This document shows positions 3,893 to 61,248 of a stretch of 64,000 nt of DNA, in pieces. Made by a program: the position numbers and the translations under genes. A model generated the notes under the pieces. The model was not told the origin of the DNA, did no database searches, and worked only from the letters and a program-made list of their open reading frames with translations. Position 1 is the stretch's first letter. The number at the start of each line of letters is the position of its first letter. The DNA comes from Sulfurovum sp. (lineage in GTDB: Bacteria; Campylobacterota; Campylobacteria; Campylobacterales; Sulfurovaceae): the NCBI GenBank assembly GCA_027068435.1, contig JAMOTA010000054.1, forward strand, positions 16,335-80,334, given 5' to 3'.

Positions 3893-5137
3893 ATGTCTAT
3901 AACAAAAAGCAAGTTAATCAACTTAACTGCCATCATTGGGATTTTTTCAGGTTCATTACTTTTCGCCGATGTACCCCCAGCAGAAAAAGAGGCTCTAGTT
4001 GCACTATACCAAACAAGCAATGGTGACAATTGGAAAAAGAACACACACTGGATGAAAGGTGACCCATGTACAGATAAATGGTATGGTATTAGTTGTAATA
4101 GCGATAATACAGCTATTACAAAAATCAAACTTCATAGCAATAAGCTTACAGGTAGTATAGCTAATGAGCTAGGTGATCTTGAAGAGCTTCGTTACCTTTC
4201 ATTAGGAAATAATAAGCTAACAGGTAAGCTACCACAATCTCTAGCACAGCTGTCAAACTTAACAGATTTACGTTTATACAAAAATAAAATTTCAGGTCAT
4301 ATTCCAGAGAACCTTTCTGAACTTTCTAAACTTACAACACTTAATTTAAGTAAAAATAAATTAACAGGTCATATTCCAGCTTCTTTTGGATTATTATCTA
4401 ATTTGAAATACCTTTCATTAGGTGACAATAATCTTAAAGGTATTATCCCTCCTCAATTAGGAGAACTTTATAACCTTACAGAGTTAAAACTCTATAAAAA
4501 CTGTTTTTATGGTGTGATACCTAGAAGTTTAGGAAACCTTTTCAATCTTAAAACACTTAATTTAAGTAAAAATATATTGACAGGTCATATTCCAGCTTCA
4601 TTAGGTGAGCTTACAAACCTTACTTACCTTACACTTGGTGGTAATAAATTAGTAGGTCATATACCTAAAACATTAGGTAACCTTAGCAAACTTACAAACT
4701 TAAGACTCTACTCTAACAAATTGACAGGTAAAATTCCAAGAACATTAGGTGAGCTTACAAAATTAAAAACTTTACACTTATTCAATAACTCTTTAGTAGG
4801 AAGAATACCTAGTACACTAGGAAATTTAACTTTATTAGAGAGTCTTAAACTAGGGAAAAACCATCTTAGTGGAAAAATACCTAAAAGTATTACAGAGTTG
4901 ATGAAACTTAAAGAGTTTTATGTAGAGAGAAATAAAATGATAGGTGCTATTCCTACTAATATGAAAGATATGTCTGAATTAAAATGTGTTAGACTTTATA
5001 AGAACTTTTTATATGCTAAAGATGATGAACTTAAAAAGTTTTTAAGTTCAAAGTCTAAATGTATTACTAATGTTTATTATCAACCAAAATGTAAAGATCA
5101 TTTATGTCATGAGCCTAATGTAGTTATGCATTTCTAA
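3893..5137 (+). CDS. Secreted leucine-rich-repeat protein of plant receptor-like type
   Basis: Signal-peptide-like N-terminus, LRRNT-like 'ALVALYQTSNGDNWKKNTHWMKGDPCTDKWYGISCN', then about 12 24-aa repeats of LxxLxLxxNxLTGxIPxxLGxLxN. Confidence 0.85.
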   Translation: MSITKSKLINLTAIIGIFSGSLLFADVPPAEKEALVALYQTSNGDNWKKNTHWMKGDPCTDKWYGISCNSDNTAITKIKLHSNKLTGSIANELGDLEELRYLSLGNNKLTGKLPQSLAQLSNLTDLRLYKNKISGHIPENLSELSKLTTLNLSKNKLTGHIPASFGLLSNLKYLSLGDNNLKGIIPPQLGELYNLTELKLYKNCFYGVIPRSLGNLFNLKTLNLSKNILTGHIPASLGELTNLTYLTLGGNKLVGHIPKTLGNLSKLTNLRLYSNKLTGKIPRTLGELTKLKTLHLFNNSLVGRIPSTLGNLTLLESLKLGKNHLSGKIPKSITELMKLKEFYVERNKMIGAIPTNMKDMSELKCVRLYKNFLYAKDDELKKFLSSKSKCITNVYYQPKCKDHLCHEPNVVMHF

Positions 5138-10892: not shown

Positions 10893-11015
10893 AGACTTAT
10901 CCTCTAAAATTTATTAATAAATATAACTTAGGAACTATACCCTATTTTAGTTATGAGTTTAATATGTTGTAAAAATGGGTTTAACTAAGACTATACTTTT
11001 AGCAATAATACAATC

Positions 11016-11084
11016 ACGTAGGGTTGGTTCACCAACCATTAAATTGCATATATATCAATTTTAGTTGATAAGTCAACCCTATGT
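11016..11084. repeat. REP/MITE-like palindromic element
   Basis: Outer inverted repeats ACGTAGGGTTGG...TCAACCCTATGT (one mismatch in the outer arms), plus inner hairpin GGTTGG-ttca-CCAACC. Confidence 0.5.
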
Positions 11085-11351
11085 ATCTTTTATATTTACC
11101 ATTTTGATAATATTTTGTATTAATATTAATTTTTAACTTTCAGTTATATGTAGCAGATTTAATATTTTCTTAATTTCATCCAAAGTTAAAATCTTGATGA
11201 TTTGAGGAAAGATCTGAAAAGTATGTGTTGTATTTTGGCATTATCAGAAGCTTAGTTCTCATCTTACTTAAATGAGTTATTTTTAATACTTATTAGATAT
11301 GATTCATCTAAAAAAGGATTTAGAATTTTAAAGCAAAAAGTAAAAATAGTA

Positions 11352-13658
11352 GTGGGTATTATTAGTATGAATAGTATGCTACTAAATAGATTACTAAAAT
11401 CCATGCAAATAGTTGATAACGAGAATATAGAGATAGATTTTAAGATTTTTGTAAATAGTCATAATTATGATAAGCCTATAGTAAATCTACCTCATACAAC
11501 CATAGACTATATTTATCTTGAAGAAGATAACTTCTTAAAAATAGCATCAGCACGAGATTTTTTACAACAAAAAATTTATGACCATTGTATAAAAAATAAG
11601 ATAAAACCTATAGTTTGGTTATTGGATGAAGATATAGAGATAGATAATAGAGCAAATAAGTATCTTCCTCGTTTAGTTGAATTTAAAAATAAGGGTTATG
11701 ATGTACTTATTGGTTCTATTGATGGAGATAGTCCAAATGCCTCTTTTTCAGGAATAAGTTTGGAGTTATTTGATTTGATTAAGAATTTAGAATGGTTAGA
11801 GAGTATGGATGAAAATGAACTATTACCCTCTCGTGAAAAATTAAATCAAGCATTAAGAGAGAAATACCCAAATTACTATTATGATTTATCTTCTGATAAA
11901 GATAAAAGTTACCGTATTAAACCTTTTTGGATTACTCCCATTAAAAATCAAGAGTGTGTTAAAGAGGCTAAGGAGCGTATTTATCTGCATTTAGTCGATA
12001 TTTTATCAGGGAAAAATTTCTTTAGAAGTATTATCCAACCACAGATAAATGAATATAAAAAAACTCTTCTTAGAGGGGCAAATACTTTTATTTTAAATCT
12101 TGATAGTTTAAAAGTTAGACAACCTATTATAAGAGTGGATGATAGAATAATTCGTAGGTCAGATATGTTGTGGGCATTGGCAAATCAAGAGTTTTTTGGT
12201 AGTAAAATTATTAAAGTAGACTTTAGTATTTGGCATAAAAGAGATATTAAACCCACCAAAGAGTTAACTGTAGAAAAAAGTATTGATGAGCTTTCAGGTT
12301 CTATTGTTTTTAATTCATTAAGACTTTTTTATGAGAATAATCAAGAGATGGCATTTGAAGAAATTTTAAAGCATCAAATTCGGACAAAAATAGAAGCTAT
12401 AAAAGAGAGTTTTCAAAGGACAAAAAAATATATAAGAGAGTTAAAAAGTTTTGGAAAATCAGAACTTACTCATTTTTGTCAACAGTTAGAAGATTTTTAT
12501 ACAGAGGAAAACTTAAATTTGATGATTAATCAAATAGAAATGATTTATACCTTTAGAGATAAAATTTTAAATAAATTCATCTCATATAAACCTTCAATTT
12601 TAAATAGTTGTGATTTGACAACTTCTTATTATGGTGTTTTTAAACAATATGATTTAGGTGATGATAATATAAAAATCTTATCTAAAAAGCCTATTGAAGA
12701 GATGGATAAAAATAGTCCGCCTTTGGTAAGAGTTCATTCATCGTGTTGTAATTCAGAGGTATTTCATGCCAATGATTGTGACTGTGCAAAACAGTTAGAG
12801 AAGTCGATGAGAATCATATCTAAGCAAGGAGATGGTATTATCTTTTATCTCAATCAAGAGGGGCGTGGTCATGGTTATTCAAACAAGATAGCCATTGTTG
12901 GTAAAATGCAAAAAGAGTCTATAGATACCTATCAATCTTGTAAGGCATTAGGACTAGAAAAAGATATAAGAGAGTACAAAAGAGTAGGAGAGCTTTTAAG
13001 AGAGTTTAGCTTTAATAAAATCCGACTCCTGTCAAATAATCCCAAAAAAATAGAAGATATAGAGAAGAGTGGAATAGAGATTATTAGAAAAAAGATTATT
13101 GGTAGCTACACAAAGCAAAATATTGATTATCTAAAGTCAAAACAGCAGTATGGTGGACATAAGAAACTTATCATTACTCAAAAGTTATTAATAGAAAGAT
13201 ATAAACCATTAGCAGACTCTATTGAATTTTATGAAAAAGAGGATGAGTATGGTGTTTTTTCTAACTTTTCAGATCATCCATTTGTTTTAGATAAAAAGTA
13301 TTGGAGAACAAGTGAACACTACTATCAAGCTAATAAATTTGAGCCATTTTCAAAAATTTATAATTCTATACAACAAGCCAAAACAGCAACTATAGCTAAA
13401 AATATCGCACATTCACATCAAATTGATGAATCGTGGGAAGAAAGAAAAATACTCTTTATGTATAATGCTCTCTATGAGAAATTTATTCAAAATAATGGGT
13501 TGATAAAGTTACTATTAAGTACAAAAAGTGCATATATTATTGAAAAAGCTATAGATGATGAATTCTGGGGTAGTGGAAGAGAAGGAAAAGGTAAAAACAT
13601 GCTTGGACGAGTGCTTATGTTTTTACGAGATGCATTCAAAGAAGAGATAGTAACATAA
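11352..13658 (+). CDS. Three-domain fusion: glycosyltransferase-like N-terminus, GTP cyclohydrolase II (RibA-like), NADAR (YbiA/COG3236-like)
   Basis: GT-A-like 'KPIVWLLDEDIEI' and 'RRSDMLWALANQ'. GCHII 'VRVHSSCCNSEVFHANDCDCAKQLE', 'YLNQEGRGHGY', 'RLLSNNPKK' with Zn-ligand Cys spacing kept. NADAR 'EYGVFSNFSDHPFVLDKKYWRTSEHYYQANKF' and 'EFWGSGREGKGKNMLG'. GTG start; the frame stays open upstream, so the start is uncertain. Confidence 0.85.
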   Translation: MGIISMNSMLLNRLLKSMQIVDNENIEIDFKIFVNSHNYDKPIVNLPHTTIDYIYLEEDNFLKIASARDFLQQKIYDHCIKNKIKPIVWLLDEDIEIDNRANKYLPRLVEFKNKGYDVLIGSIDGDSPNASFSGISLELFDLIKNLEWLESMDENELLPSREKLNQALREKYPNYYYDLSSDKDKSYRIKPFWITPIKNQECVKEAKERIYLHLVDILSGKNFFRSIIQPQINEYKKTLLRGANTFILNLDSLKVRQPIIRVDDRIIRRSDMLWALANQEFFGSKIIKVDFSIWHKRDIKPTKELTVEKSIDELSGSIVFNSLRLFYENNQEMAFEEILKHQIRTKIEAIKESFQRTKKYIRELKSFGKSELTHFCQQLEDFYTEENLNLMINQIEMIYTFRDKILNKFISYKPSILNSCDLTTSYYGVFKQYDLGDDNIKILSKKPIEEMDKNSPPLVRVHSSCCNSEVFHANDCDCAKQLEKSMRIISKQGDGIIFYLNQEGRGHGYSNKIAIVGKMQKESIDTYQSCKALGLEKDIREYKRVGELLREFSFNKIRLLSNNPKKIEDIEKSGIEIIRKKIIGSYTKQNIDYLKSKQQYGGHKKLIITQKLLIERYKPLADSIEFYEKEDEYGVFSNFSDHPFVLDKKYWRTSEHYYQANKFEPFSKIYNSIQQAKTATIAKNIAHSHQIDESWEERKILFMYNALYEKFIQNNGLIKLLLSTKSAYIIEKAIDDEFWGSGREGKGKNMLGRVLMFLRDAFKEEIVT

Positions 13659-15142
13659 TGTGTGGTATTGTTGTTGTTATTGGTAAAAATTCTAAAGTTA
13701 AAGCCAAAAAAGCTCTAAATAAAATTAAACATAGAGGAGGAGATGATTATACTATTGTGACTATTGACAATATGAGTATGGGTTTTACTAGACTCTCTAT
13801 TAATGAGCAAAGTTCAAAAGGAAACCAACCATTTTATTATGAGAACTATATCGGACTATTTAATGCAGAGATATATAATAGTAATCAGTTAAATAAAAAA
13901 TATAATCTAAATATAAAAAGCAAATCAGACTGTGAAGTAATACTTCCTCTCTATCAAAAAATTGGAAAAGAGGTCATTAATATATTAGATGGTTTTTTTG
14001 TAGGAGTCATTTATGATAAAAAAGAAGAAACACTTTTGATACTAAAAGATTATATAGGTAAAAAACCTCTTTTTTTTGCCTATGATGAAGATACTCAATA
14101 TATTATTAGTGAATTAAAAGCTCTACCAAAAATTCAATATTTTGAGGATTTTCCCAAAGGTATATCTATCCTAAAAGGTAAAGAGATTCGACTATTAAAA
14201 AAACATCATCATACTTTTTTAAATCATAAGTCATTCCTTAAAGATAGTCTATATAAAGCTGTTGAAAAACGGATTGAGGGTATTAAAAACATGAAAGTAG
14301 GTATTTTTTTAAGTGGTGGATTAGATAGCTCGATTGTTGCATCACTTGTAAATCAATTTTTACCTGCTAACAGAATACATTATTATGCTATTGCTGACCC
14401 CAAAAGTGAAGATTTACAATATATCAATATTATGAAAGATTTTTTAAATATTCATGATGATAAAATTTCTTATGTTCCTTTACCCAATAGAGAGAGATTA
14501 CTACATCTCTTACAAGAAGTTGTATATGCCACAGAAAGTACTAATCCTTCTATTATTAGTAATGGGATAGGTGCTTATATACTCTCTCAAAAAGCTCATA
14601 GTGATGAAATCAAAGTTGTGATAACAGGAGATGGAGCAGATGAAGTTTTTTTGGGATATTACAATAGAGATTTTCTGAGTAATTCAAGTAAATGGAGAAA
14701 ATTACAACAAGATTTTATTAATGAGTTATGTTTAACAGAACTTCGCAGAGTTGATTTGGCATGTATGGCAAACTCTGTAGAGGTTCGTTGTCCTTTTTTG
14801 GATAAAAAGGTTTGCGAAATAGCTCTAAATTTAGAGTATGAAGATTTTTTTGGTAAAGATATAGATTCATTAAATAAAAATATACTTCGAGATATATTTA
14901 AAGATGTATTACCACAAGAGATAACTAATCGTAAAAAAGTATCTTTTGATGTGGGTAGTGGACTACAACATAGAATTGTAGAGTTATGTACTGAAAATAG
15001 TTTAAGCGAAAGAGAATATCTTAAAAATATTTGGAATGAGATGTTTGGTAAAAATCTATCAAAAGTGGATAAAGACCCTTATTTTTGGTCATATCCACAG
15101 TTTGATAAAATGATAGAAAAACGAGGAGAGAAATATCAATAA
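13658..15142 (+). CDS. AsnB-like glutamine-dependent amidotransferase
   Basis: N-terminal 'MCGIVVVIG' (GATase II Cys2), 'KHRGGDDY', 'FNAEIYN', synthetase motif 'GIFLSGGLDSSIVASL', 'VVITGDGADEVFLGY'. TAATG overlap with the upstream gene. Confidence 0.87.
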   Translation: MCGIVVVIGKNSKVKAKKALNKIKHRGGDDYTIVTIDNMSMGFTRLSINEQSSKGNQPFYYENYIGLFNAEIYNSNQLNKKYNLNIKSKSDCEVILPLYQKIGKEVINILDGFFVGVIYDKKEETLLILKDYIGKKPLFFAYDEDTQYIISELKALPKIQYFEDFPKGISILKGKEIRLLKKHHHTFLNHKSFLKDSLYKAVEKRIEGIKNMKVGIFLSGGLDSSIVASLVNQFLPANRIHYYAIADPKSEDLQYINIMKDFLNIHDDKISYVPLPNRERLLHLLQEVVYATESTNPSIISNGIGAYILSQKAHSDEIKVVITGDGADEVFLGYYNRDFLSNSSKWRKLQQDFINELCLTELRRVDLACMANSVEVRCPFLDKKVCEIALNLEYEDFFGKDIDSLNKNILRDIFKDVLPQEITNRKKVSFDVGSGLQHRIVELCTENSLSEREYLKNIWNEMFGKNLSKVDKDPYFWSYPQFDKMIEKRGEKYQ

Positions 15143-15149
15143 TATATGG

Positions 15150-15920
15150 ATGTTTCATCGTATAAGATGTGAGAATAATTATATACCCAATATCTATGAT
15201 AAAAGATGTATGGTTCATCAGTTTGAAGAGATTATAGATCTTATAGATTTAGCGATAAAAAAAGGCAATGAATTTGGTTCAATTGCCCAAGCACTAGAAG
15301 ATAACAATACAATTCATATTAGCTTTGATGATGGGTATAAAGAGCATCTATGGGTAGCACAAGCACTAAAACAACGATATAAATTTTCATTTGACACCAT
15401 CACATTTTCAATTAATATTAAAAACTCTTTTTATGATAAAAAGCTCTGTATGGATATACTCTATGAATGGATAGAGACAAAAAATTTTAAACCATTTGAA
15501 GATCTATTTGATATGAAACCATCTGATATTGATGTGAATGTGATAAAAAAGAAAATATTTACAGATAAAAAATATATTTCTCTTTTAAATAGATATTATC
15601 CAAAAATGCAAAAGTACTTTTTGGATGAGCTTGAAGTGATTGAACTATCCAAACTATTCTCTATAGGAAGCCATTGTATAAACCACTTTTTTTTAACCTC
15701 ATTAGATAGTGATGAGGTTTATAATGAACTGAATCAATCAAAAAGAATCCTAGAATCTAAACTGCAAATATCTATTGATACAATCTGTTATCCTGAAGGG
15801 AAAAGCAGTGGCTCAATAGAAAAGATAGCCAAAAGTATAGGGTATAAATTTGGTCTTTCTATTTCAGGTAATAAAAAATTATATAAAATTAAAAGGGTTA
15901 TTCCAAGATGTATATTATAG
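15150..15920 (+). CDS. Polysaccharide deacetylase (NodB-like) family protein
   Basis: 'MFHRI' start, 'IHISFDDGYKEHL', 'GSHCINHFFLTSLDSDEVYNELNQSKRILE', 'CYPEGKSSGSIEKIAKSIGYKFGLS'. Confidence 0.8.
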   Translation: MFHRIRCENNYIPNIYDKRCMVHQFEEIIDLIDLAIKKGNEFGSIAQALEDNNTIHISFDDGYKEHLWVAQALKQRYKFSFDTITFSINIKNSFYDKKLCMDILYEWIETKNFKPFEDLFDMKPSDIDVNVIKKKIFTDKKYISLLNRYYPKMQKYFLDELEVIELSKLFSIGSHCINHFFLTSLDSDEVYNELNQSKRILESKLQISIDTICYPEGKSSGSIEKIAKSIGYKFGLSISGNKKLYKIKRVIPRCIL

Positions 15921-17095
15921 ATAAAATAGCTACTATATTATTTAAGTTTAAATATAGAAAAAATATTAAATATCCATCAGTAGTTATAGGATATAAAGGG
16001 ATGAAAATTGGTAAAAACAGTATTATTCAACCATTTTCTACACTTAAAGCAAATAAAGAAAATACGTATGGGAAAATAATAATTGGAAAGAATACTTATA
16101 TTGGAGAGCATAGCTATATATTAGGTGGCAATGGCAGTGTACACATAGGTAATGATTTTCATGCTGGAAATAATTTAATTTTACTAGGTGGAGGAGATAT
16201 ATATATAGGTAATAATGTTTTAATGTCTCAAAACATAGTTGTCTCATCAAGTTCACATGAATTTAAAGATACGAAAGTTATGGTAAATGAAACCGCTTCA
16301 ATCTTTAATACGGTAATTATTTCAGATAATGTATTCATTGGAGCAAATGCTACTATACTAATGGGAACAACTATAGAAAGAGGGGCAATTATTGGTGCTG
16401 GTAGTGTTGTGACTGAAAATACAATTATTAAAGAAGATGAAATATGGACAGGAAACCCTGCTAAAATGATAAGAACAAGAATCTCTCTAAAAGAGCAGAT
16501 AGAAGAAGAGATAGATAATTTTTTAAAACAATATCCCTTTCATAATCTTTTTCTGTTATATGGATTCAAAGATATTTTTGCCTCAGAATATGGGGGAACT
16601 TGTTCTGATAGAACCATACTATTTAAAGAGAAATTAGATGAAAAATTTCAAGAAATACCTATAAATATAAAATTACATCGTGCATTTATCAATGATAAAC
16701 AGACACATACAATTCTTAAGATAAAAATTTATAATAAGGTATATTTTTGTGATGTAGGTATGGGCTATCCTATTACAAAATTACTACCAAGTTATCAAAA
16801 TATAAAATTTAATAGTTATGGCATTAAATTTAAATCAGTTGTAGAGAAAAATAATATAACAGTTTATATTGATGAAGGGGATGGGGAAAAAGAGCTAATA
16901 AAAATAGTTAATGAAGTGCAATCACAAGAAGATATTAGACAAAGTATTGATAATAGATGGGAGAGTAGAGAAGAATTACCATTTAATAATCGATTGAGAT
17001 ATTTTTTTATTTATAAAAATATATATTATCAGATTAGAGATAATGATTTTTCATTTAATTGTGAGGCAAAGAGAATTTATTACAATCCAAAATAA
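15908..17095 (+). CDS. Fusion: left-handed beta-helix (hexapeptide) acyltransferase plus arylamine N-acetyltransferase (NAT)-like domain
   Basis: N-terminal hexapeptide repeats 'IIGKNTYIGEHSYILGGNGSVHIGNDF...VFIGANATILMGTTIERGAIIGAGSVVTENTI..WTGNPAKMI'. C-terminal NAT triad in 'EYGGTCSDRTILFKEKL' (Cys codon 16601-16603), 'QTHTILKIKIYNKVYFCDVGMG' (His, Asp). Confidence 0.75.
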   Translation: MYIIDKIATILFKFKYRKNIKYPSVVIGYKGMKIGKNSIIQPFSTLKANKENTYGKIIIGKNTYIGEHSYILGGNGSVHIGNDFHAGNNLILLGGGDIYIGNNVLMSQNIVVSSSSHEFKDTKVMVNETASIFNTVIISDNVFIGANATILMGTTIERGAIIGAGSVVTENTIIKEDEIWTGNPAKMIRTRISLKEQIEEEIDNFLKQYPFHNLFLLYGFKDIFASEYGGTCSDRTILFKEKLDEKFQEIPINIKLHRAFINDKQTHTILKIKIYNKVYFCDVGMGYPITKLLPSYQNIKFNSYGIKFKSVVEKNNITVYIDEGDGEKELIKIVNEVQSQEDIRQSIDNRWESREELPFNNRLRYFFIYKNIYYQIRDNDFSFNCEAKRIYYNPK

Positions 17096-17106
17096 CATAC
17101 TTAAAC

Positions 17107-17300
17107 TCCCTAAAAAAGCTCTTTTAGTGCTAATGCATGTCCCCTTTCATCTAATGGGTAGGATAGTAGTAGCTCTAATTTTAGTAAAATTTATCTCTAT
17201 GTCTCTGTCATTATCAGCTTTTGGGCTATCTTTACAATTGCTATTTTAAACGGGATTATACTTGTAAGTTTTATTGATGAACTAGATAATATTGATATTA
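17107..17300 (+). pseudogene. Decayed fragment of a CzcA/CusA-type heavy-metal RND efflux pump
   Basis: 'KALLVLMHVPFHLMGRIVVALILVKFISMSLSLSAFG' (cf. ALLVxxNVPFALxGGI...LSVxASVGF), then a frame change to 'FTIAILNGIILVSFIDEL' (cf. GIAVLNGVVLVSFIxxL). No intact gene. Confidence 0.65.
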
Positions 17301-17509
17301 ATTTCCCTTTTTTTAATATAATTATATTATATCGTAGTAAAATAAGAAACTAAAATAAAGTATTTTTTATTTGCAAAATAAATTTATTGATAAATGTATG
17401 CTACAAGCAAGAGTTTTGTATAATCTTAGATATATAGCAAATAAATAGGTATATTTTGAGTATATTGATTATTACCCTTCTCAAAAACCATATACATAGG
17501 ATTTAATAC

Positions 17510-27898: not shown

Positions 27899-29740
27899 TT
27901 GAAAAATAGTAACTATTCACTCTTTATAAAAATAAATCTACTGATTACAACTATTCTATTTCTCTCTTTTTTACAATATAATAGAGACTATACTATAGGT
28001 GAATTATTAATAGTAGCAATGGGTACAATATCTAGTGCTACAATCTTATATATTTTACTATATATTTTACTTTTTATCTTTTTATTTAGCAAAAAATTCA
28101 TATTATACCTCTCTGCATTTATCTTTACTGCTGTAAATATAATTCTAATTATTGATTTTTTTATATTTAGGCTCTATAAGTTTCATATCAATGCGATGAT
28201 ACTAAATATTCTAACTTCTCCTGATGCTATGGACTCTATACAGCTTGGACTTTTACCTCTACTATTTTTTATAGCTATAATTTTAGGGTTTATAAGTCTT
28301 GAACTATATATTATTAAAAAACTTATAAGTATCAAAGAAAAAAGAAAATATCAACTTAATAAACAGTTAAATAGAGTCATAATTATTCCATTAGTACTTA
28401 TTATTTTTACAGAAAAGATAGGATATGGACTACTCTCTCTCTTTTCAAAAAATGAGACTATTTCAAAATTTAAAGTCATACCACTGTATCAACCCCTAAC
28501 CTTTACTAAAGTAGCAACAAAATATTTTGACTTCAACATAGAGAAAGAGGCAAAAAATATAATAAGAAAAGAAGGGCTACTTAACTACCCTCTATCACCA
28601 TTAAAACTAAAAGAAAACCAACAAAAAATAAATATCTTTATCTTTGCAAGTGATGCTGTAAATTATACTCAAATCAACGCTAAGACTACTCCAAATATAG
28701 AAAATTTTAAAAAAGATGCTATTAGTTTTCAGCATCACTATAGTGGAGGAAATGCTACAAGATTTGGTATTTTTTCACTAATGTATGGTCTTAACTCAAC
28801 CTATTGGTTCTCTTTTTTAAATGCTAATAGAGGTCCTGTTCTTTTTGATGTACTTAATGAACTAAATTACAATATTAGCATTATCTCCTCAACTAATACC
28901 AACTGGCCAGAATTTAGAAGAACTTGTTATGTTGATATACAAAATAGCATTCAAGATGATGCAGAAGGTAAACCATGGGAAAAAGATAAGCAGAGCAAAG
29001 AGAGATTTATATCTAAAGTAAATGGGTACAGTACAAAAGAACCTATATTCTCTTTTGTATTTCTTGACTCTCCTCATGGCTACTCCTCTCCAAAAGATTT
29101 CAATCCATTTAATGCAGAGGACAAAGAAATTAATTATCTCACTGTAGATAATAAAGGCAGAGATATAAAGACACTTTTTGCTCAATATAAAAATGCCGTA
29201 GCTTATAATGATAAACTATTTGGAGAAATGATAAACAAACTTAAAGAGAGAGAACTCTATGATAACTCACTAATTATCTACACTTCTGACCATGGTCAAG
29301 AGTTCTATGAGTATGGTTCATTTGGTCACAATTCCTCTTTTTCAACAGCACAAACCGTTACCCCTATGATTATCAAATTACCAAATAATCTAAAAGGTCA
29401 GTTAGAATTACCTGCTAAATTTCCAAACATTCTCACTAGCCACAATGATATAGTACCAACACTACTAACACTTTTAGGAGTAAAAAACTCAACTAATGAC
29501 TATAGTAATGGTTATAATATTTTTGATAGAAAATTTAATAGAACATCTATTTTTTGTGCTAATTGGAACCATAATGCTATTATTGACAAAAAATACTCTT
29601 ATATCTTTTCAAACCTTCCAAACAAAATGTTTAAAAGTAAAATTAAAGAGAATAGTAACTACAAAACAGTTAAAAATATAGAGATAAATAGTACAAAGAT
29701 TCTAAAAGTGATGAATGAAAATAAAAGGTTCTTAAAGTAA
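27899..29740 (+). CDS. YejM-like/DUF3413 inner-membrane sulfatase-family protein
   Basis: Multi-TM N-terminus; 'SGGNATRFGIFSLMYGLN', 'IIYTSDHGQEFYEYGSFGHNSSFS'. TTG start. Confidence 0.8.
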   Translation: MKNSNYSLFIKINLLITTILFLSFLQYNRDYTIGELLIVAMGTISSATILYILLYILLFIFLFSKKFILYLSAFIFTAVNIILIIDFFIFRLYKFHINAMILNILTSPDAMDSIQLGLLPLLFFIAIILGFISLELYIIKKLISIKEKRKYQLNKQLNRVIIIPLVLIIFTEKIGYGLLSLFSKNETISKFKVIPLYQPLTFTKVATKYFDFNIEKEAKNIIRKEGLLNYPLSPLKLKENQQKINIFIFASDAVNYTQINAKTTPNIENFKKDAISFQHHYSGGNATRFGIFSLMYGLNSTYWFSFLNANRGPVLFDVLNELNYNISIISSTNTNWPEFRRTCYVDIQNSIQDDAEGKPWEKDKQSKERFISKVNGYSTKEPIFSFVFLDSPHGYSSPKDFNPFNAEDKEINYLTVDNKGRDIKTLFAQYKNAVAYNDKLFGEMINKLKERELYDNSLIIYTSDHGQEFYEYGSFGHNSSFSTAQTVTPMIIKLPNNLKGQLELPAKFPNILTSHNDIVPTLLTLLGVKNSTNDYSNGYNIFDRKFNRTSIFCANWNHNAIIDKKYSYIFSNLPNKMFKSKIKENSNYKTVKNIEINSTKILKVMNENKRFLK

Positions 29741-52392: not shown

Positions 52393-53427
52393 TTATCTAA
52401 CTTCTATCTTCTCTACTACATCTAAACCAAAACCAGCAAGTCCAACAAACTCTGTTTCTTTATTACTAGTAAGTAAGTTGATGTTTTTAATACCTAAATC
52501 TTTAAGTATTTGAGCTCCTACACCAAACTCTTTAGCTTGTTCATGAGAGATAACCTTAGTATCAAGGAAAACAAGTACACCACCGTTTTGCTTTAAGTAG
52601 TCTATAGAGTTATTTAATGCAGAAAATCGTTTATCATCAAGTACAAGATCAATATCTGTACCAATATTATGAAACTTTACATTTGCTCTTTCATGCGATT
52701 TGTAAAACTGCATTACAGTATGTGTTCTATCTAAGTGATCTTTATAGCTTATTTTCTTTACAACAACACCTCTTAGTTCAGTCTGCTCTTCTGAAATACG
52801 AGTAATAAGTTGTTCATTAGCTAAACGATACTCTACAATATCAGAGATATATAAGATACACATATCATGTTCTTTAGAGAAAATTTCAAGATCATCCATA
52901 CGTGCCATTTTTCCATCATCTTTAATGATTTCACAAATAACCGCAGCAGGAGCAAGACCTGCTAATTTACATATATCTACTGATCCCTCAGTATGTCCCG
53001 TACGTACCAAAACTCCACCATCTTTAGCAATAAGAGGAAAGATATGCCCTGGACGAACAAAGTCACTAGCTACAGTTAAAGGATTAGAAAGTTTAGAGAT
53101 ACAGTCATCTCTCTCAGCTGCAGATATACCTGTTTCTGCATTAGTCGAATCAATAGAAACAGTAAATGCAGTTTCATGGTTAGAAACATTATTTGTAACC
53201 ATAGGCATTAAATCTAATTTAGATGCTATCTCTTTAGTAACAGGTGTACAGATAAGCCCTCTAGCCTCTTTAGCCATAAAGTTAACAAGTTCAGGAGTAG
53301 AGAAAGTTGCAGCATAAACAAGATCTCCTTCATTTTCACGATCTTCATCATCCATCATGATGACCATCTTTCCTCTTTTTATCTCATCTATCGCTTTTTC
53401 TACTCTTTGTATTGCATCTGTTAGCAT
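52393..53427 (-). CDS. ribB: 3,4-dihydroxy-2-butanone-4-phosphate synthase (RibB) with degenerate GCHII-like C-terminal domain
   Basis: 'MMDDEDRENEGDLVYAA', 'RPGHIFPLIAKDGGVLVRTGHTEGSVDICKLAG'. The C-terminal GCHII-like part has no cysteines (Zn ligands absent). Confidence 0.92.
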   Translation of the reverse strand: MLTDAIQRVEKAIDEIKRGKMVIMMDDEDRENEGDLVYAATFSTPELVNFMAKEARGLICTPVTKEIASKLDLMPMVTNNVSNHETAFTVSIDSTNAETGISAAERDDCISKLSNPLTVASDFVRPGHIFPLIAKDGGVLVRTGHTEGSVDICKLAGLAPAAVICEIIKDDGKMARMDDLEIFSKEHDMCILYISDIVEYRLANEQLITRISEEQTELRGVVVKKISYKDHLDRTHTVMQFYKSHERANVKFHNIGTDIDLVLDDKRFSALNNSIDYLKQNGGVLVFLDTKVISHEQAKEFGVGAQILKDLGIKNINLLTSNKETEFVGLAGFGLDVVEKIEVR

Positions 53428-58215: not shown

Positions 58216-61200
58216 TTAAGTTAAAACCTTATCCATCAATTCACCGTAATCTTTAACACAATCATAACTTATACTATCATCATTTAAACACTCAAAATAC
58301 TTTTTCGCATACTCTATTTTTAAATCTTCACTACCTTTTAATTGAAGTTTATCCATACAGTTACCTTTTGTTTCAGCTATAAAATATATATCTTTTTTAT
58401 CTGTTCCATTAAATACTATTGCCCAATCAGGGTTATAGTTACCCATAGGTGTTGGTATTTTGAAGTCATTTGGTAGTTTTGCATACACGACTATCTCATT
58501 ATCATCCATCTCTTTAGCCATTACTCTTTCTACTTGTGAATCATACTTTAGGTAATCATATATATGTTTTTTGACTTCCATAGTATCTTTTGATAGATTA
58601 TATTTGAAATTTGGTATCGTAAATATATCTGTCTCATACACCTCATCAGTTTTAAAATACTTGATACCACTGACTAAAAGTTTTGCTTTTTGAGTGTTGA
58701 TAATATGTGTTACTTTTATGATAAACTCTTCAGGATTTACTTTAAACTGGTTAAATTTCTTTTCGTTTATCTCTGCTAATATTTTGATAATCGTTTTTCT
58801 AGTCAATAGTGTATTTTTCTCTATCTCTCCTACCAAGTCATATCGAGTACTCCCTAGCTCATGGTTTAGAAGTTCATACTTTTTTTTCTCACTTGACATC
58901 ATACTGCTGTTTTTTTCAAGATTTTCAACTTTTAAATGCTCTTTTTGTGAAGATGAGGAGATGATTACCTTCACTTTGCTAACTTCAAGTTGTTGGTTTA
59001 TAGCTTCTACACTCTCATCTTTCAACACTACACTATCTACATTTATGGTGTAAGTTGCTTTAGCGTTTATCTTACTCCAAAGTGCTTGAAACTCTTTTTT
59101 ATCAAAATTTTCATTTGGTTTTAGCTCACCTACAGTTACATTTTTACCATTACCTATCATATCACCAACTACTGCAACACTATTAGCTTTTATCACTAAT
59201 TCTTTTACTTGCTTTTCCCAAAGTTTAAGTTGTGGTATCACATCAAATGAACCATCTTTTATATCTTTTATAGCAACATCAGTAATAAACTCATCATCCC
59301 CTATATAACCTTTTTCTTTCCAATCTTTAACAATCTCTTTAGCCAACTTGTCGCCTATTTTTAGTTCCATCCCATCATCATTCATAAGTATAATTTGACT
59401 CAATACTTTTAGGGTTATCTTTGTCTCTCGTGATAGTGAATCAAGTATCTCTTTTTGCAATGTTGAAGCAAACTCATCATAAGATTCACTAGCTATAACA
59501 GTAAGTGAATTGACATCAAAAAACGCACCACCTAGTAGGCTTTCATCTTGTCTTATACCGTGATTATCTACACATATCCGTAAACCTCTTCCTATCTCTT
59601 GTCTTTTGCTATCTGTACTGTTTGAGTGTTTTAATGTACATATCTGAAATACATTAGGATTATCCCAACCCTCTTTGAGTGCAGAGTGTGAAAATATAAA
59701 CCTAGTAGGCTCTTTCAAACTCAACAACTTCTCTTTGTCTTTCATTATCAAGTCATACGCACTGCTATCTTTTTCTATTTCAGACACTTTTGTTTTTGGC
59801 TTTCCTTTTTTATCTACAGAAAAATAACCTTTATGAATATCATCTATTTCAAACGACTCAACATATTTAGCATACTCACTATCAAATAGCCCTATTTCAT
59901 CTTTTAAAATATTTTGATACTCTTCCTCAAATACTTCACCATATTCAGCTTTTATTTTTGCATTGTTGCCATCATAGATTCTATATTTTGCTACCTCATC
60001 TATGAAAAATAGGCTCAATACTTTGATGCCCTTAGCATATAATTCTTTCTCTTTTTGTATATGGCTTTTGATAGTTTCTCTTATCTGTATTCGTCTTAGA
60101 TGTTTCTCTTGGACTGACCCAACTACCCCACCTGCAAATATCTTTGTCCCATTTAAAAACTCTATGCTATTTTCGTCTGCTCTTATGGATTTGACTATAA
60201 ACTTATCTTGATATTCATTGAGTTGGTTAGATATATCAAATATATTATCACCCTCACTTACTCGTACGCTTTTTTTAACTACAGCATTTTTAAGCTTCAT
60301 ATCTATCTCAATTAATGCTGTGGGGTCTGATTTACTCACTTTTATATTGTCTAAAAATATATATCCTCCAGTAGCACTATCAGTTTTGACATCTATGGCT
60401 TTTACAGAGATTCTTTTTACCAACTTTTGATTGTACGCATCTATGGCATCAAGTCGATAGACCTTGTGAAATTCAAAACCTTTTTTATGTGTAGCACTAT
60501 ATCTCAGGGTAAAAAGTGCCTTGAACTCCTCTAGCTTTTTCTCTGCTGTTTTGCCTAGTCTTTGTGGCTCATCTATGATAAGTATTGGATTTGTGCTACT
60601 TATCACATCTATGGGCTTGCTAGAGATGGGTGATTGCATAAAGTCTTGTTTTTCGTATATTTTTCTACTCTCTTTAGATTTTGTAGCAAAGGCTTGATAG
60701 TTCATTATCATCACCTCTATCTCACTACTGCTAGAGAAGTTACTTATATTTGTAAGGTTTGAGGAGTTCTTTGTATCATATATAAAAAATCTTAACTTTT
60801 TTTCATACTTCTCTTCATATTTAAAATGCTCTGCTGTTATCTCCAAAGATTTCTTCACGCCCTCTCTTATGGCGATACTTGGCACGATGATGATAAATTT
60901 ATTCCAACCGTACTTTTTGTTTAGCTCAAACATCGTCTTGGTATAGACATAAGTTTTTCCAGTTCCTGTCTCCATCTCTATAGTGAAGTGTAACCCTTGC
61001 TTCATATCTAGACTCTGCTTTAAGAGTTCATCTTTTTTCTGTATAGTTTGAATGTTATTTAAGAGTTCTATCTTTATAGGATTATTTGAAAATCTTGAAG
61101 TTACTTTTTCTTCTACAATCAATCCACTTTTTATAACTCTTCTGTCAACTATATCTTCCCTACTACCCCTACCTTGACCCTTAAATATATCGACAACGGC

Positions 61201-61248
61201 ATTAGTAGCATCAGTCTGATAATCTTGTGATTTAAATTGTAATCTCAT
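58216..61248 (-). CDS. Type III restriction enzyme, Res subunit
   Basis: 'IEMETGTGKTYVYTKTM', 'ILIIDEPQRLGK', 'LKEGWDNPNVFQICTL', 'QEIGRGLRI', PD-(D/E)xK-like 'YNPDWAIVF...YFIAETKG'. Confidence 0.93.
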   Translation of the reverse strand: MRLQFKSQDYQTDATNAVVDIFKGQGRGSREDIVDRRVIKSGLIVEEKVTSRFSNNPIKIELLNNIQTIQKKDELLKQSLDMKQGLHFTIEMETGTGKTYVYTKTMFELNKKYGWNKFIIIVPSIAIREGVKKSLEITAEHFKYEEKYEKKLRFFIYDTKNSSNLTNISNFSSSSEIEVMIMNYQAFATKSKESRKIYEKQDFMQSPISSKPIDVISSTNPILIIDEPQRLGKTAEKKLEEFKALFTLRYSATHKKGFEFHKVYRLDAIDAYNQKLVKRISVKAIDVKTDSATGGYIFLDNIKVSKSDPTALIEIDMKLKNAVVKKSVRVSEGDNIFDISNQLNEYQDKFIVKSIRADENSIEFLNGTKIFAGGVVGSVQEKHLRRIQIRETIKSHIQKEKELYAKGIKVLSLFFIDEVAKYRIYDGNNAKIKAEYGEVFEEEYQNILKDEIGLFDSEYAKYVESFEIDDIHKGYFSVDKKGKPKTKVSEIEKDSSAYDLIMKDKEKLLSLKEPTRFIFSHSALKEGWDNPNVFQICTLKHSNSTDSKRQEIGRGLRICVDNHGIRQDESLLGGAFFDVNSLTVIASESYDEFASTLQKEILDSLSRETKITLKVLSQIILMNDDGMELKIGDKLAKEIVKDWKEKGYIGDDEFITDVAIKDIKDGSFDVIPQLKLWEKQVKELVIKANSVAVVGDMIGNGKNVTVGELKPNENFDKKEFQALWSKINAKATYTINVDSVVLKDESVEAINQQLEVSKVKVIISSSSQKEHLKVENLEKNSSMMSSEKKKYELLNHELGSTRYDLVGEIEKNTLLTRKTIIKILAEINEKKFNQFKVNPEEFIIKVTHIINTQKAKLLVSGIKYFKTDEVYETDIFTIPNFKYNLSKDTMEVKKHIYDYLKYDSQVERVMAKEMDDNEIVVYAKLPNDFKIPTPMGNYNPDWAIVFNGTDKKDIYFIAETKGNCMDKLQLKGSEDLKIEYAKKYFECLNDDSISYDCVKDYGELMDKVLT

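What the first reader, a model, noticed from the sequence alone, without database searches (positions are those of the whole stretch)
11352..17095. Four-gene operon built around a GT-like/GTP-cyclohydrolase II/NADAR fusion: candidate undescribed purine-derived metabolite pathway or GTP-consuming system
Seen: four co-directional, tightly packed genes (TAATG overlap at 13658, 7-nt gap at 15142/15150, 13-nt overlap at 15908/15920) encoding GT-like/GCHII/NADAR, AsnB-like, NodB-like and hexapeptide-NAT proteins. Established: GCHII opens GTP to the diaminopyrimidine riboflavin precursor, and COG3236/NADAR proteins hydrolyse the N-glycosidic bond of early riboflavin intermediates. Inference: the fusion could convert GTP to a free triaminopyrimidine plus ribose-5-phosphate. 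The free arylamine would suit the AsnB-like enzyme (amide formation) and the NAT-like domain (arylamine acylation), while the GT/NodB/hexapeptide proteins suggest a sugar moiety. Alternatively it is a regulated GTP-depleting defence module.
Basis: partly seen in the sequence, partly recalled or inferred. Interest (0 to 1): 0.88.

Follow-up and report, generated by a model that had tools for sequence, protein, structure and literature searches.

The report
Uncharacterised GTP-derived metabolite gene cluster
Four packed genes in a sulfur-oxidising-type bacterium belong to a small, horizontally spread gene cluster, also found in unrelated bacteria, that most likely opens GTP to make an unknown sugar-linked small molecule; I found no description of it in the papers I could search.

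Summary
Four co-directional genes (11352-17095) encode GT-like/GCHII/NADAR, AsnB, NodB and hexapeptide-NAT proteins, in a low-GC island (0.26-0.29 versus 0.36) of a Sulfurovaceae genome. The set is real: six loci in two phyla share GT-A domain + GCHII + NADAR + NAT, five of them with AsnB, including a Pseudoalteromonas plasmid and a locus beside a transposase. Two more loci keep GT, NAT and NodB but carry an SLOG/LOG-like protein instead of GCHII-NADAR. All five searched hosts of the GCHII form keep a separate housekeeping RibA. The six cluster GCHIIs form one clade (99/94) with a changed active site: E53S, Y105V plus one inserted residue and T149S, where 26 RibA comparison loci are invariant. 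Zinc cysteines and R128 are kept. The unannotated N-terminal domain models as a GT-A glycosyltransferase. Best reading: a mobile specialised-metabolism cluster that turns GTP into a free aminopyrimidine (possibly still formylated), then glycosylates and acylates it. GTP-depleting defence and extra riboflavin supply are less likely. A GCHII-NADAR fusion alone is not new (Vibrio RibA-COG3236). The product is unknown and nothing biochemical was tested. New variant of a known kind; interest 0.6.

The parts
11325..11351 (+). probable true N-terminal extension of ORF1 (ATT start, RBS AAAGGA at 11313-11318)
   Evidence: frame open, residues resemble L026 N-terminus; not proved
11352..12620 (+). ORF1 N-terminal domain: GT-A glycosyltransferase-like (residues 1-423; DxD-type D92-E-D94; invariant R268 R269 D271)
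   Evidence: AF2 pLDDT 79.9, pTM 0.78; Foldseek PDB top hits all GT-A enzymes; alignments A4/A7
12621..13190 (+). ORF1 middle domain: divergent GTP cyclohydrolase II (Zn Cys kept, R128 kept; E53S, Y105V with +1 insertion, T149S)
   Evidence: Pfam; PDB hits 4rl4, 2bz0; alignment A8; comparator RibA
13221..13655 (+). ORF1 C-terminal domain: NADAR of YbiA class (TIGR02464; EHYYQA, catalytic Glu in IIEKAIDDEFWG)
   Evidence: class marker from PMC11125620
13658..15142 (+). ORF2: AsnB-like glutamine-dependent amidotransferase (Cys2, SGGLDSS, GDGADE kept)
15150..15920 (+). ORF3: NodB/polysaccharide deacetylase family (FDDGY, HxxxH kept)
15908..16483 (+). ORF4 N-terminal part: hexapeptide (left-handed beta-helix) acetyltransferase; 51% identical to stand-alone L026 protein
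16484..17092 (+). ORF4 C-terminal part: NAT-like acyltransferase, Cys-His-Asp triad kept
11000..17500 (.). low-GC island (genes 0.263-0.285 versus 0.355 +/- 0.031 in other window genes)

Best explanation
It is a small, mobile specialised-metabolism cluster. The divergent GCHII opens the imidazole ring of GTP to a pyrimidine ribonucleotide, perhaps keeping the formyl group. The fused NADAR cuts off ribose-5-phosphate to give a free aminopyrimidine base. The fused GT-A domain joins a sugar to it (or to its nucleoside); in the Campylobacterota form NodB de-N-acetylates that sugar. The AsnB-like and NAT-like enzymes then form amide bonds on the exposed amines or acids, and the hexapeptide protein acetylates. 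Shown: domain identities, catalytic-residue retention, co-occurrence, a dedicated GCHII clade, GT-A fold of the model. Inferred: order of steps, substrates and product.
For: Same gene set in six loci of two phyla and in unrelated contexts; every searched host of the GCHII form keeps its own RibA; cluster GCHIIs form one clade with 99/94 support, apart from host RibAs; S53/V105/S149 in 6 of 6 cluster enzymes versus E/Y/T in 26 of 26 RibA loci; NAT triad, NodB metal residues and AsnB Cys2/PP-loop conserved; GT-A fold with nucleoside glucosyltransferase AvpGT among the matches; two related loci replace GCHII-NADAR by an SLOG/LOG-class protein next to GT, NAT and NodB, a hint that freeing a base is the shared step. 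Precedent for nucleotide N-glycosidase followed by a glycosyltransferase: mildiomycin MilB/MilC (PMC11784345).
Against: No product, substrate or activity is known. No transporter, resistance or regulator gene adjoins in the window. NodB, hexapeptide, AsnB and PhyH vary between loci, so one common product is unlikely. The GT-A match is fold-level only (best Foldseek E 1.2e-3, TM at most 0.53). SLOG cluster 4 proteins are not proved N-glycosidases. NADARs can also remove ADP-ribose from guanine (PMC11543638).
Confidence: 0.58

Rival explanations
1. Surface-glycan decoration cluster: GT, NodB, hexapeptide, AsnB and NAT build or modify an acylated amino or uronamide sugar on a polysaccharide, with GCHII-NADAR supplying an unusual substituent or a side activity.
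For: NodB, hexapeptide O-acetyltransferase, GT2 and AsnB-type amidotransferases all occur in polysaccharide clusters; best ORF4 NCBIfam matches are WcaF/WbbJ-type; gamma forms carry a second classical GT2 domain.
Against: No flippase, polymerase or nucleotide-sugar genes recognised in the eight loci; GCHII-NADAR is present in six of eight and is fused to the GT in Campylobacterota; hexapeptide and NodB are absent in the gamma GCHII loci.
Confidence: 0.2
2. Anti-phage defence module that either depletes GTP or makes an antiviral nucleoside-like metabolite.
For: Sporadic distribution (2 of 175 family genomes), plasmid location next to conjugation genes, transposase and integrase fragment beside L043, no exporter; a NADAR candidate defence model matches weakly.
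Against: No defence genes adjoin in the loci seen; no sensor or regulator domain; five biosynthetic enzyme classes are not needed for GTP depletion; hosts keep RibA which itself consumes GTP.
Confidence: 0.12
3. Extra riboflavin-pathway capacity or damage control, like the Vibrio RibA-COG3236 protein.
For: The same two domains are fused in V. cholerae/V. vulnificus (PMC5312566); TIGR02464 equivalog-domain match above cut-off.
Against: Domain order is reversed relative to the Vibrio fusion (L023: NADAR first, Tyr105 kept); no ribD/E/H/B nearby; hosts have their own RibA; active-site changes fixed in the clade.
Confidence: 0.06
4. NADAR serves as an ADP-ribosyl-guanine hydrolase and the operon is a toxin-antitoxin or repair unit.
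For: YbiA-class NADARs remove ADP-ribose from guanine and can be antitoxins (PMC11125620, PMC11543638).
Against: No ADP-ribosyltransferase gene recognised in any locus; GCHII fusion and biosynthetic partners unexplained.
Confidence: 0.03

Closest known systems
RibA-COG3236 (NADAR-GCHII) fusion of Vibrio riboflavin operons
   Same: Both enzymatic domains in one protein
   Different: In L023 the order is NADAR then GCHII, with E53/Y105/T149 kept; the window enzyme is GT-GCHII-NADAR with changed active site, next to AsnB and NAT genes
GCHII-dependent azapteridine antibiotic clusters (toxoflavin, fervenulin, pseudoiodinine psdABCDEFG)
   Same: A dedicated GCHII starts a specialised metabolite from GTP (PMC9911603)
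   Different: The psd cluster uses RibD-like, methyltransferase and WD-repeat genes; it has no GT, NADAR fusion, AsnB, NodB or NAT as here
Mildiomycin/blasticidin peptidyl nucleosides (MilB-MilC logic)
   Same: Nucleotide N-glycosidase frees a base, then a glycosyltransferase adds another sugar (PMC11784345)
   Different: Starts from CMP and uses UDP-glucuronate; homology to the window genes not tested; no GCHII or NADAR
AvpGT/NucGT nucleoside 3'-O-glucosyltransferases
   Same: GT-A fold, GT2 family, act on nucleosides
   Different: About 9% identity in the structural alignment; fold-level resemblance only
GdmF-type amide synthases / arylamine N-acetyltransferases
   Same: ORF4 C-terminal domain and homologues keep the Cys-His-Asp triad and match NAT and GdmF structures
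   Different: Shorter, low identity; substrate unknown

Membership tests
GTP cyclohydrolase II | Three zinc cysteines (E. coli C54, C65, C67) | tested here: met
   HSSC...DCDC in all six cluster proteins
GTP cyclohydrolase II | Arg128 and Asp126 | tested here: met
   DIRE/DIRD/DVRS-type motif keeps D and R in all six
GTP cyclohydrolase II (riboflavin type) | Glu53, Tyr105, Thr149 | tested here: not met
   S, V (with one inserted residue) and S in six of six, versus E, Y, T in 26 of 26 RibA loci. TIGR00505 ribA equivalog cut-off not reached: 134 versus 206 bits
GTP cyclohydrolase II | Opens GTP with release of formate and pyrophosphate | not testable with these tools
   needs enzyme assay
NADAR, YbiA subfamily | Catalytic Glu in the last strand | tested here: met
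   E308 of the 345-aa fragment invariant in A8; marker from PMC11125620
NADAR, YbiA subfamily | N-glycosidase activity on early riboflavin intermediates | not testable with these tools
   TIGR02464 match above its cut-off, 111.5 versus 73.7 bits, is the only evidence
GT-A glycosyltransferase | GT-A fold and DxD motif | tested here: met
   Model pLDDT 79.9; top Foldseek matches are GT-A enzymes, though all at E above 0.001; D92/D94 invariant in eight sequences
GT-A glycosyltransferase | Sugar donor and acceptor | not testable with these tools
   fold does not give substrate
Glutamine-dependent asparagine synthetase family | N-terminal Cys2 and PP-loop SGGxDSS | tested here: met
   invariant in five homologues
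NodB (CE4) deacetylase | Catalytic/metal Asp pair and HxxxH | tested here: met
   D60, D61, H175, H179 invariant in four homologues
NAT (arylamine N-acyltransferase) | Cys-His-Asp triad | tested here: met
   C74, H105, D120 (L026 numbering) invariant in six homologues
Known anti-phage defence system | Match to a described system's full gene set | tested here: not met
   PADLOC finds only a NADAR candidate model in ORF1 among the window proteins

The most novel reading that the evidence does not exclude
An undescribed, plasmid-mobile class of specialised metabolites built on a GTP-derived formamidopyrimidine or triaminopyrimidine base that is freed by NADAR, re-glycosylated and amidated. The same GT/NAT core would have recruited two unrelated nucleotide N-glycosidase families (NADAR or SLOG), and the product would act inside the cell, possibly against phage or competitors.
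Probability: 0.33. Interest if true: 0.82.

Novelty: new variant of a known kind. Interest (0 to 1): 0.6.

Why it matters
If right, it shows that NADAR/COG3236, known as a damage-control enzyme and as an antitoxin, has been built into dedicated biosynthesis. It also gives a compact (5.6-6.5 kb, 3-5 genes), self-contained and naturally mobile pathway that can be tested by heterologous expression. It flags GCHIIs with a replaced conserved tyrosine as possibly product-altered enzymes that annotation pipelines currently call RibA.

Tried and rejected
Riboflavin housekeeping: rejected, see rival. Phage origin: GT-like domain not found in viral contigs; the viral hits to the GCHII-NADAR profile cover only its NADAR part, and no phage record covers most of ORF1. 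Empty-site comparison: neighbours of the flanking ybgC-like gene are not conserved in the genus, so no clean insertion site could be shown. Kinase-like middle domain of the gammaproteobacterial GT protein: weak kinase hits (E 0.014), no credible Pfam hit, low-confidence model (mean pLDDT 58.9), so left undecided. Repeats, promoters and terminators around the operon: nothing convincing. Glu127 of E. coli GCHII was first noted as changed, but it varies in ordinary RibA too, so it was dropped. Literature: no paper found describing this gene combination. The key GCHII paper (Spoonamore et al. 2006) and Frelin et al. 2015 were not held.

Full report
WHAT IS THERE. The four ORFs are as reported. Pfam and NCBIfam give ORF1 = [no family]-GTP_cyclohydro2-NADAR, ORF2 = AsnB, ORF3 = Polysacc_deac_1, ORF4 = Hexapep plus Acetyltransf_2. 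The four genes have GC 0.263-0.285 against 0.355 (sd 0.031) for other window genes, consistent with acquired DNA. The genome (G000, 2.0 Mb, 94% complete) shares its GTDB family with an uncultured Sulfurovum MAG, so it is most likely Sulfurovaceae, Campylobacterota. ORF1 probably starts at an ATT (11325) rather than the GTG (inference).

IS THE SET CONSERVED? Yes. A full-length homologue was found on a mobilizable Pseudoalteromonas donghaensis plasmid, directly downstream of traC: GT2-x-GT-like | GCHII-NADAR | AsnB | NAT. GT-like, AsnB and NAT are 34, 43 and 32% identical to the window proteins. Profile searches then gave a Sulfurovum MAG, L026 (GT-GCHII-NADAR | NAT | PhyH | NodB | hexapeptide; ORF1 51% identical); a Gammaproteobacteria MAG, L027 (GT2-GT | GCHII-NADAR | AsnB | NAT); and two more proteobacterial genomes, L042 and L043, with the plasmid's gene order. 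L043 lies beside a transposase and an integrase fragment. The cluster is rare: of 175 family genomes only the window's and the Sulfurovum MAG's had it; 1 of 397 in the phylum sample had the full-length protein.

A WIDER FAMILY. Two distant GT-like relatives lack GCHII and NADAR. L036 is NAT-GT fusion | DUF4915-like | SLOG | NodB. L037 is SLOG | NodB | NAT | PhyH | M20 | GT. The PhyH of L037 is 33% identical to that of L026, so the modules really mix. The SLOG proteins are LDcluster4/TIGR00725 with a weak match to the cytokinin phosphoribohydrolase LOG model. LOG enzymes split a base from a nucleoside monophosphate (own knowledge), which is the same kind of step NADAR performs on riboflavin intermediates (reported in PMC11543638). 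Whether these SLOG proteins do so is unknown. Across all eight loci GT-like and NAT are universal, a nucleotide N-glycosidase class (NADAR 6, SLOG 2) is always present, and NodB is in four.

THE GCHII IS NOT ORDINARY. Each of the five searched GCHII-bearing genomes has a separate RibA; the Pseudoalteromonas chromosome was not searched. The six cluster GCHIIs form a clade with 99/94 support spanning two phyla, apart from host RibAs. They keep Zn Cys54/65/67, Asp126 and Arg128 (E. coli numbers), but all have Ser for Glu53, Val at Tyr105 with one inserted residue, and Ser for Thr149. Twenty-six comparison RibA loci, including the hosts' own and a Vibrio NADAR-RibA fusion, all have E, Y, T. Two of those 26 (L002, L052) are the same gene, so 25 are distinct. 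The Y105 placement depends on where the one-residue insertion is put: in the Pseudoalteromonas protein the next residue is Tyr. From memory, Spoonamore et al. 2006 (doi 10.1021/bi061005x, title confirmed, text not held) showed that a Streptomyces GCHII with another residue in place of this tyrosine stops at the formylated pyrimidine. On that basis the cluster enzymes may make 2-amino-5-formylamino-6-ribosylamino-4(3H)-pyrimidinone 5'-phosphate; this is a prediction, not a result.

OTHER PARTS. NADAR is of the YbiA class, with the catalytic Glu conserved. The N-terminal domain models well (pLDDT 79.9) and its top Foldseek matches are GT-A enzymes: mannosylglycerate synthase, TarS/TarP, PcManGT and AvpGT, at E 1.2e-3 or worse and 7-14% identity. 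AvpGT glucosylates nucleosides (PMC11959488); that is suggestive only. AsnB keeps Cys2 and the PP-loop, NodB its metal residues, and NAT its triad in all six sequences aligned.

HOW IT LIKELY WORKS. GTP -> ring-opened pyrimidine nucleotide (GCHII) -> free base + ribose-5-phosphate (NADAR) -> glycosylated base (GT-A) -> de-N-acetylated sugar (NodB, Campylobacterota form) -> amide formation (NAT, AsnB) and O-acetylation (hexapeptide). Steps one and two rest on family biochemistry, the later ones on family membership and co-occurrence. The release-then-glycosylate logic has a precedent in mildiomycin (PMC11784345), and GCHII-initiated specialised metabolism in toxoflavin and pseudoiodinine (PMC9911603).

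NOVELTY. A GCHII-NADAR fusion is known (PMC5312566). The combined cluster was not found in the literature searched, which covers open-licence papers only. I rate it a new variant of GCHII-initiated specialised metabolism.

LIMITS. No activity, product or phenotype was tested. The survey sampled genomes and used one pattern scan of the GTDB collection, so both frequency and architecture diversity are lower bounds.

Noticed in passing
window 52393-53427 (-): RibBA-like gene: complete DHBP synthase followed by only the end of a GCHII domain (residues 295-341), so GCHII function for riboflavin presumably comes from the separate RibA on contig C13.
   Followed up: partly
window 27899-29740 (+): Sulfatase/DUF3413 protein with GC 0.275, as low as the operon, between normal-GC genes; possibly another acquired gene.
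   Followed up: no
window 58216-61248 (-): Type III restriction enzyme Res subunit (ResIII plus RE_endonuc), about 41 kb from the operon; not linked to it.
   Followed up: no
window 3893-5137 (+): Leucine-rich-repeat protein, 414 aa, with seven LRR stretches.
   Followed up: no
L022/L042/L043 GT protein, about residues 280-650: Invariant NNIHPKNLI...IDYGSDIRPW stretch resembling a protein-kinase catalytic loop with the catalytic Asp replaced; no credible Pfam family, weak kinase hits only.
   Followed up: partly
L036 2492-3565: DUF4915/TIGR03032-like protein (below cut-off) inside the SLOG-type cluster, not seen in the other loci.
   Followed up: no
G604 and G622 genomes (loci L036, L037): No GCHII match at E <= 0.001 in the two genomes that carry the SLOG variant; incompleteness or a different riboflavin route not checked.
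   Followed up: no
window 11023-11080: Short inverted-repeat-like segment (GGGTTGG...CCAACC, then GTTGATAAGTCAACCC) in the AT-rich intergenic region upstream of the operon.
   Followed up: no
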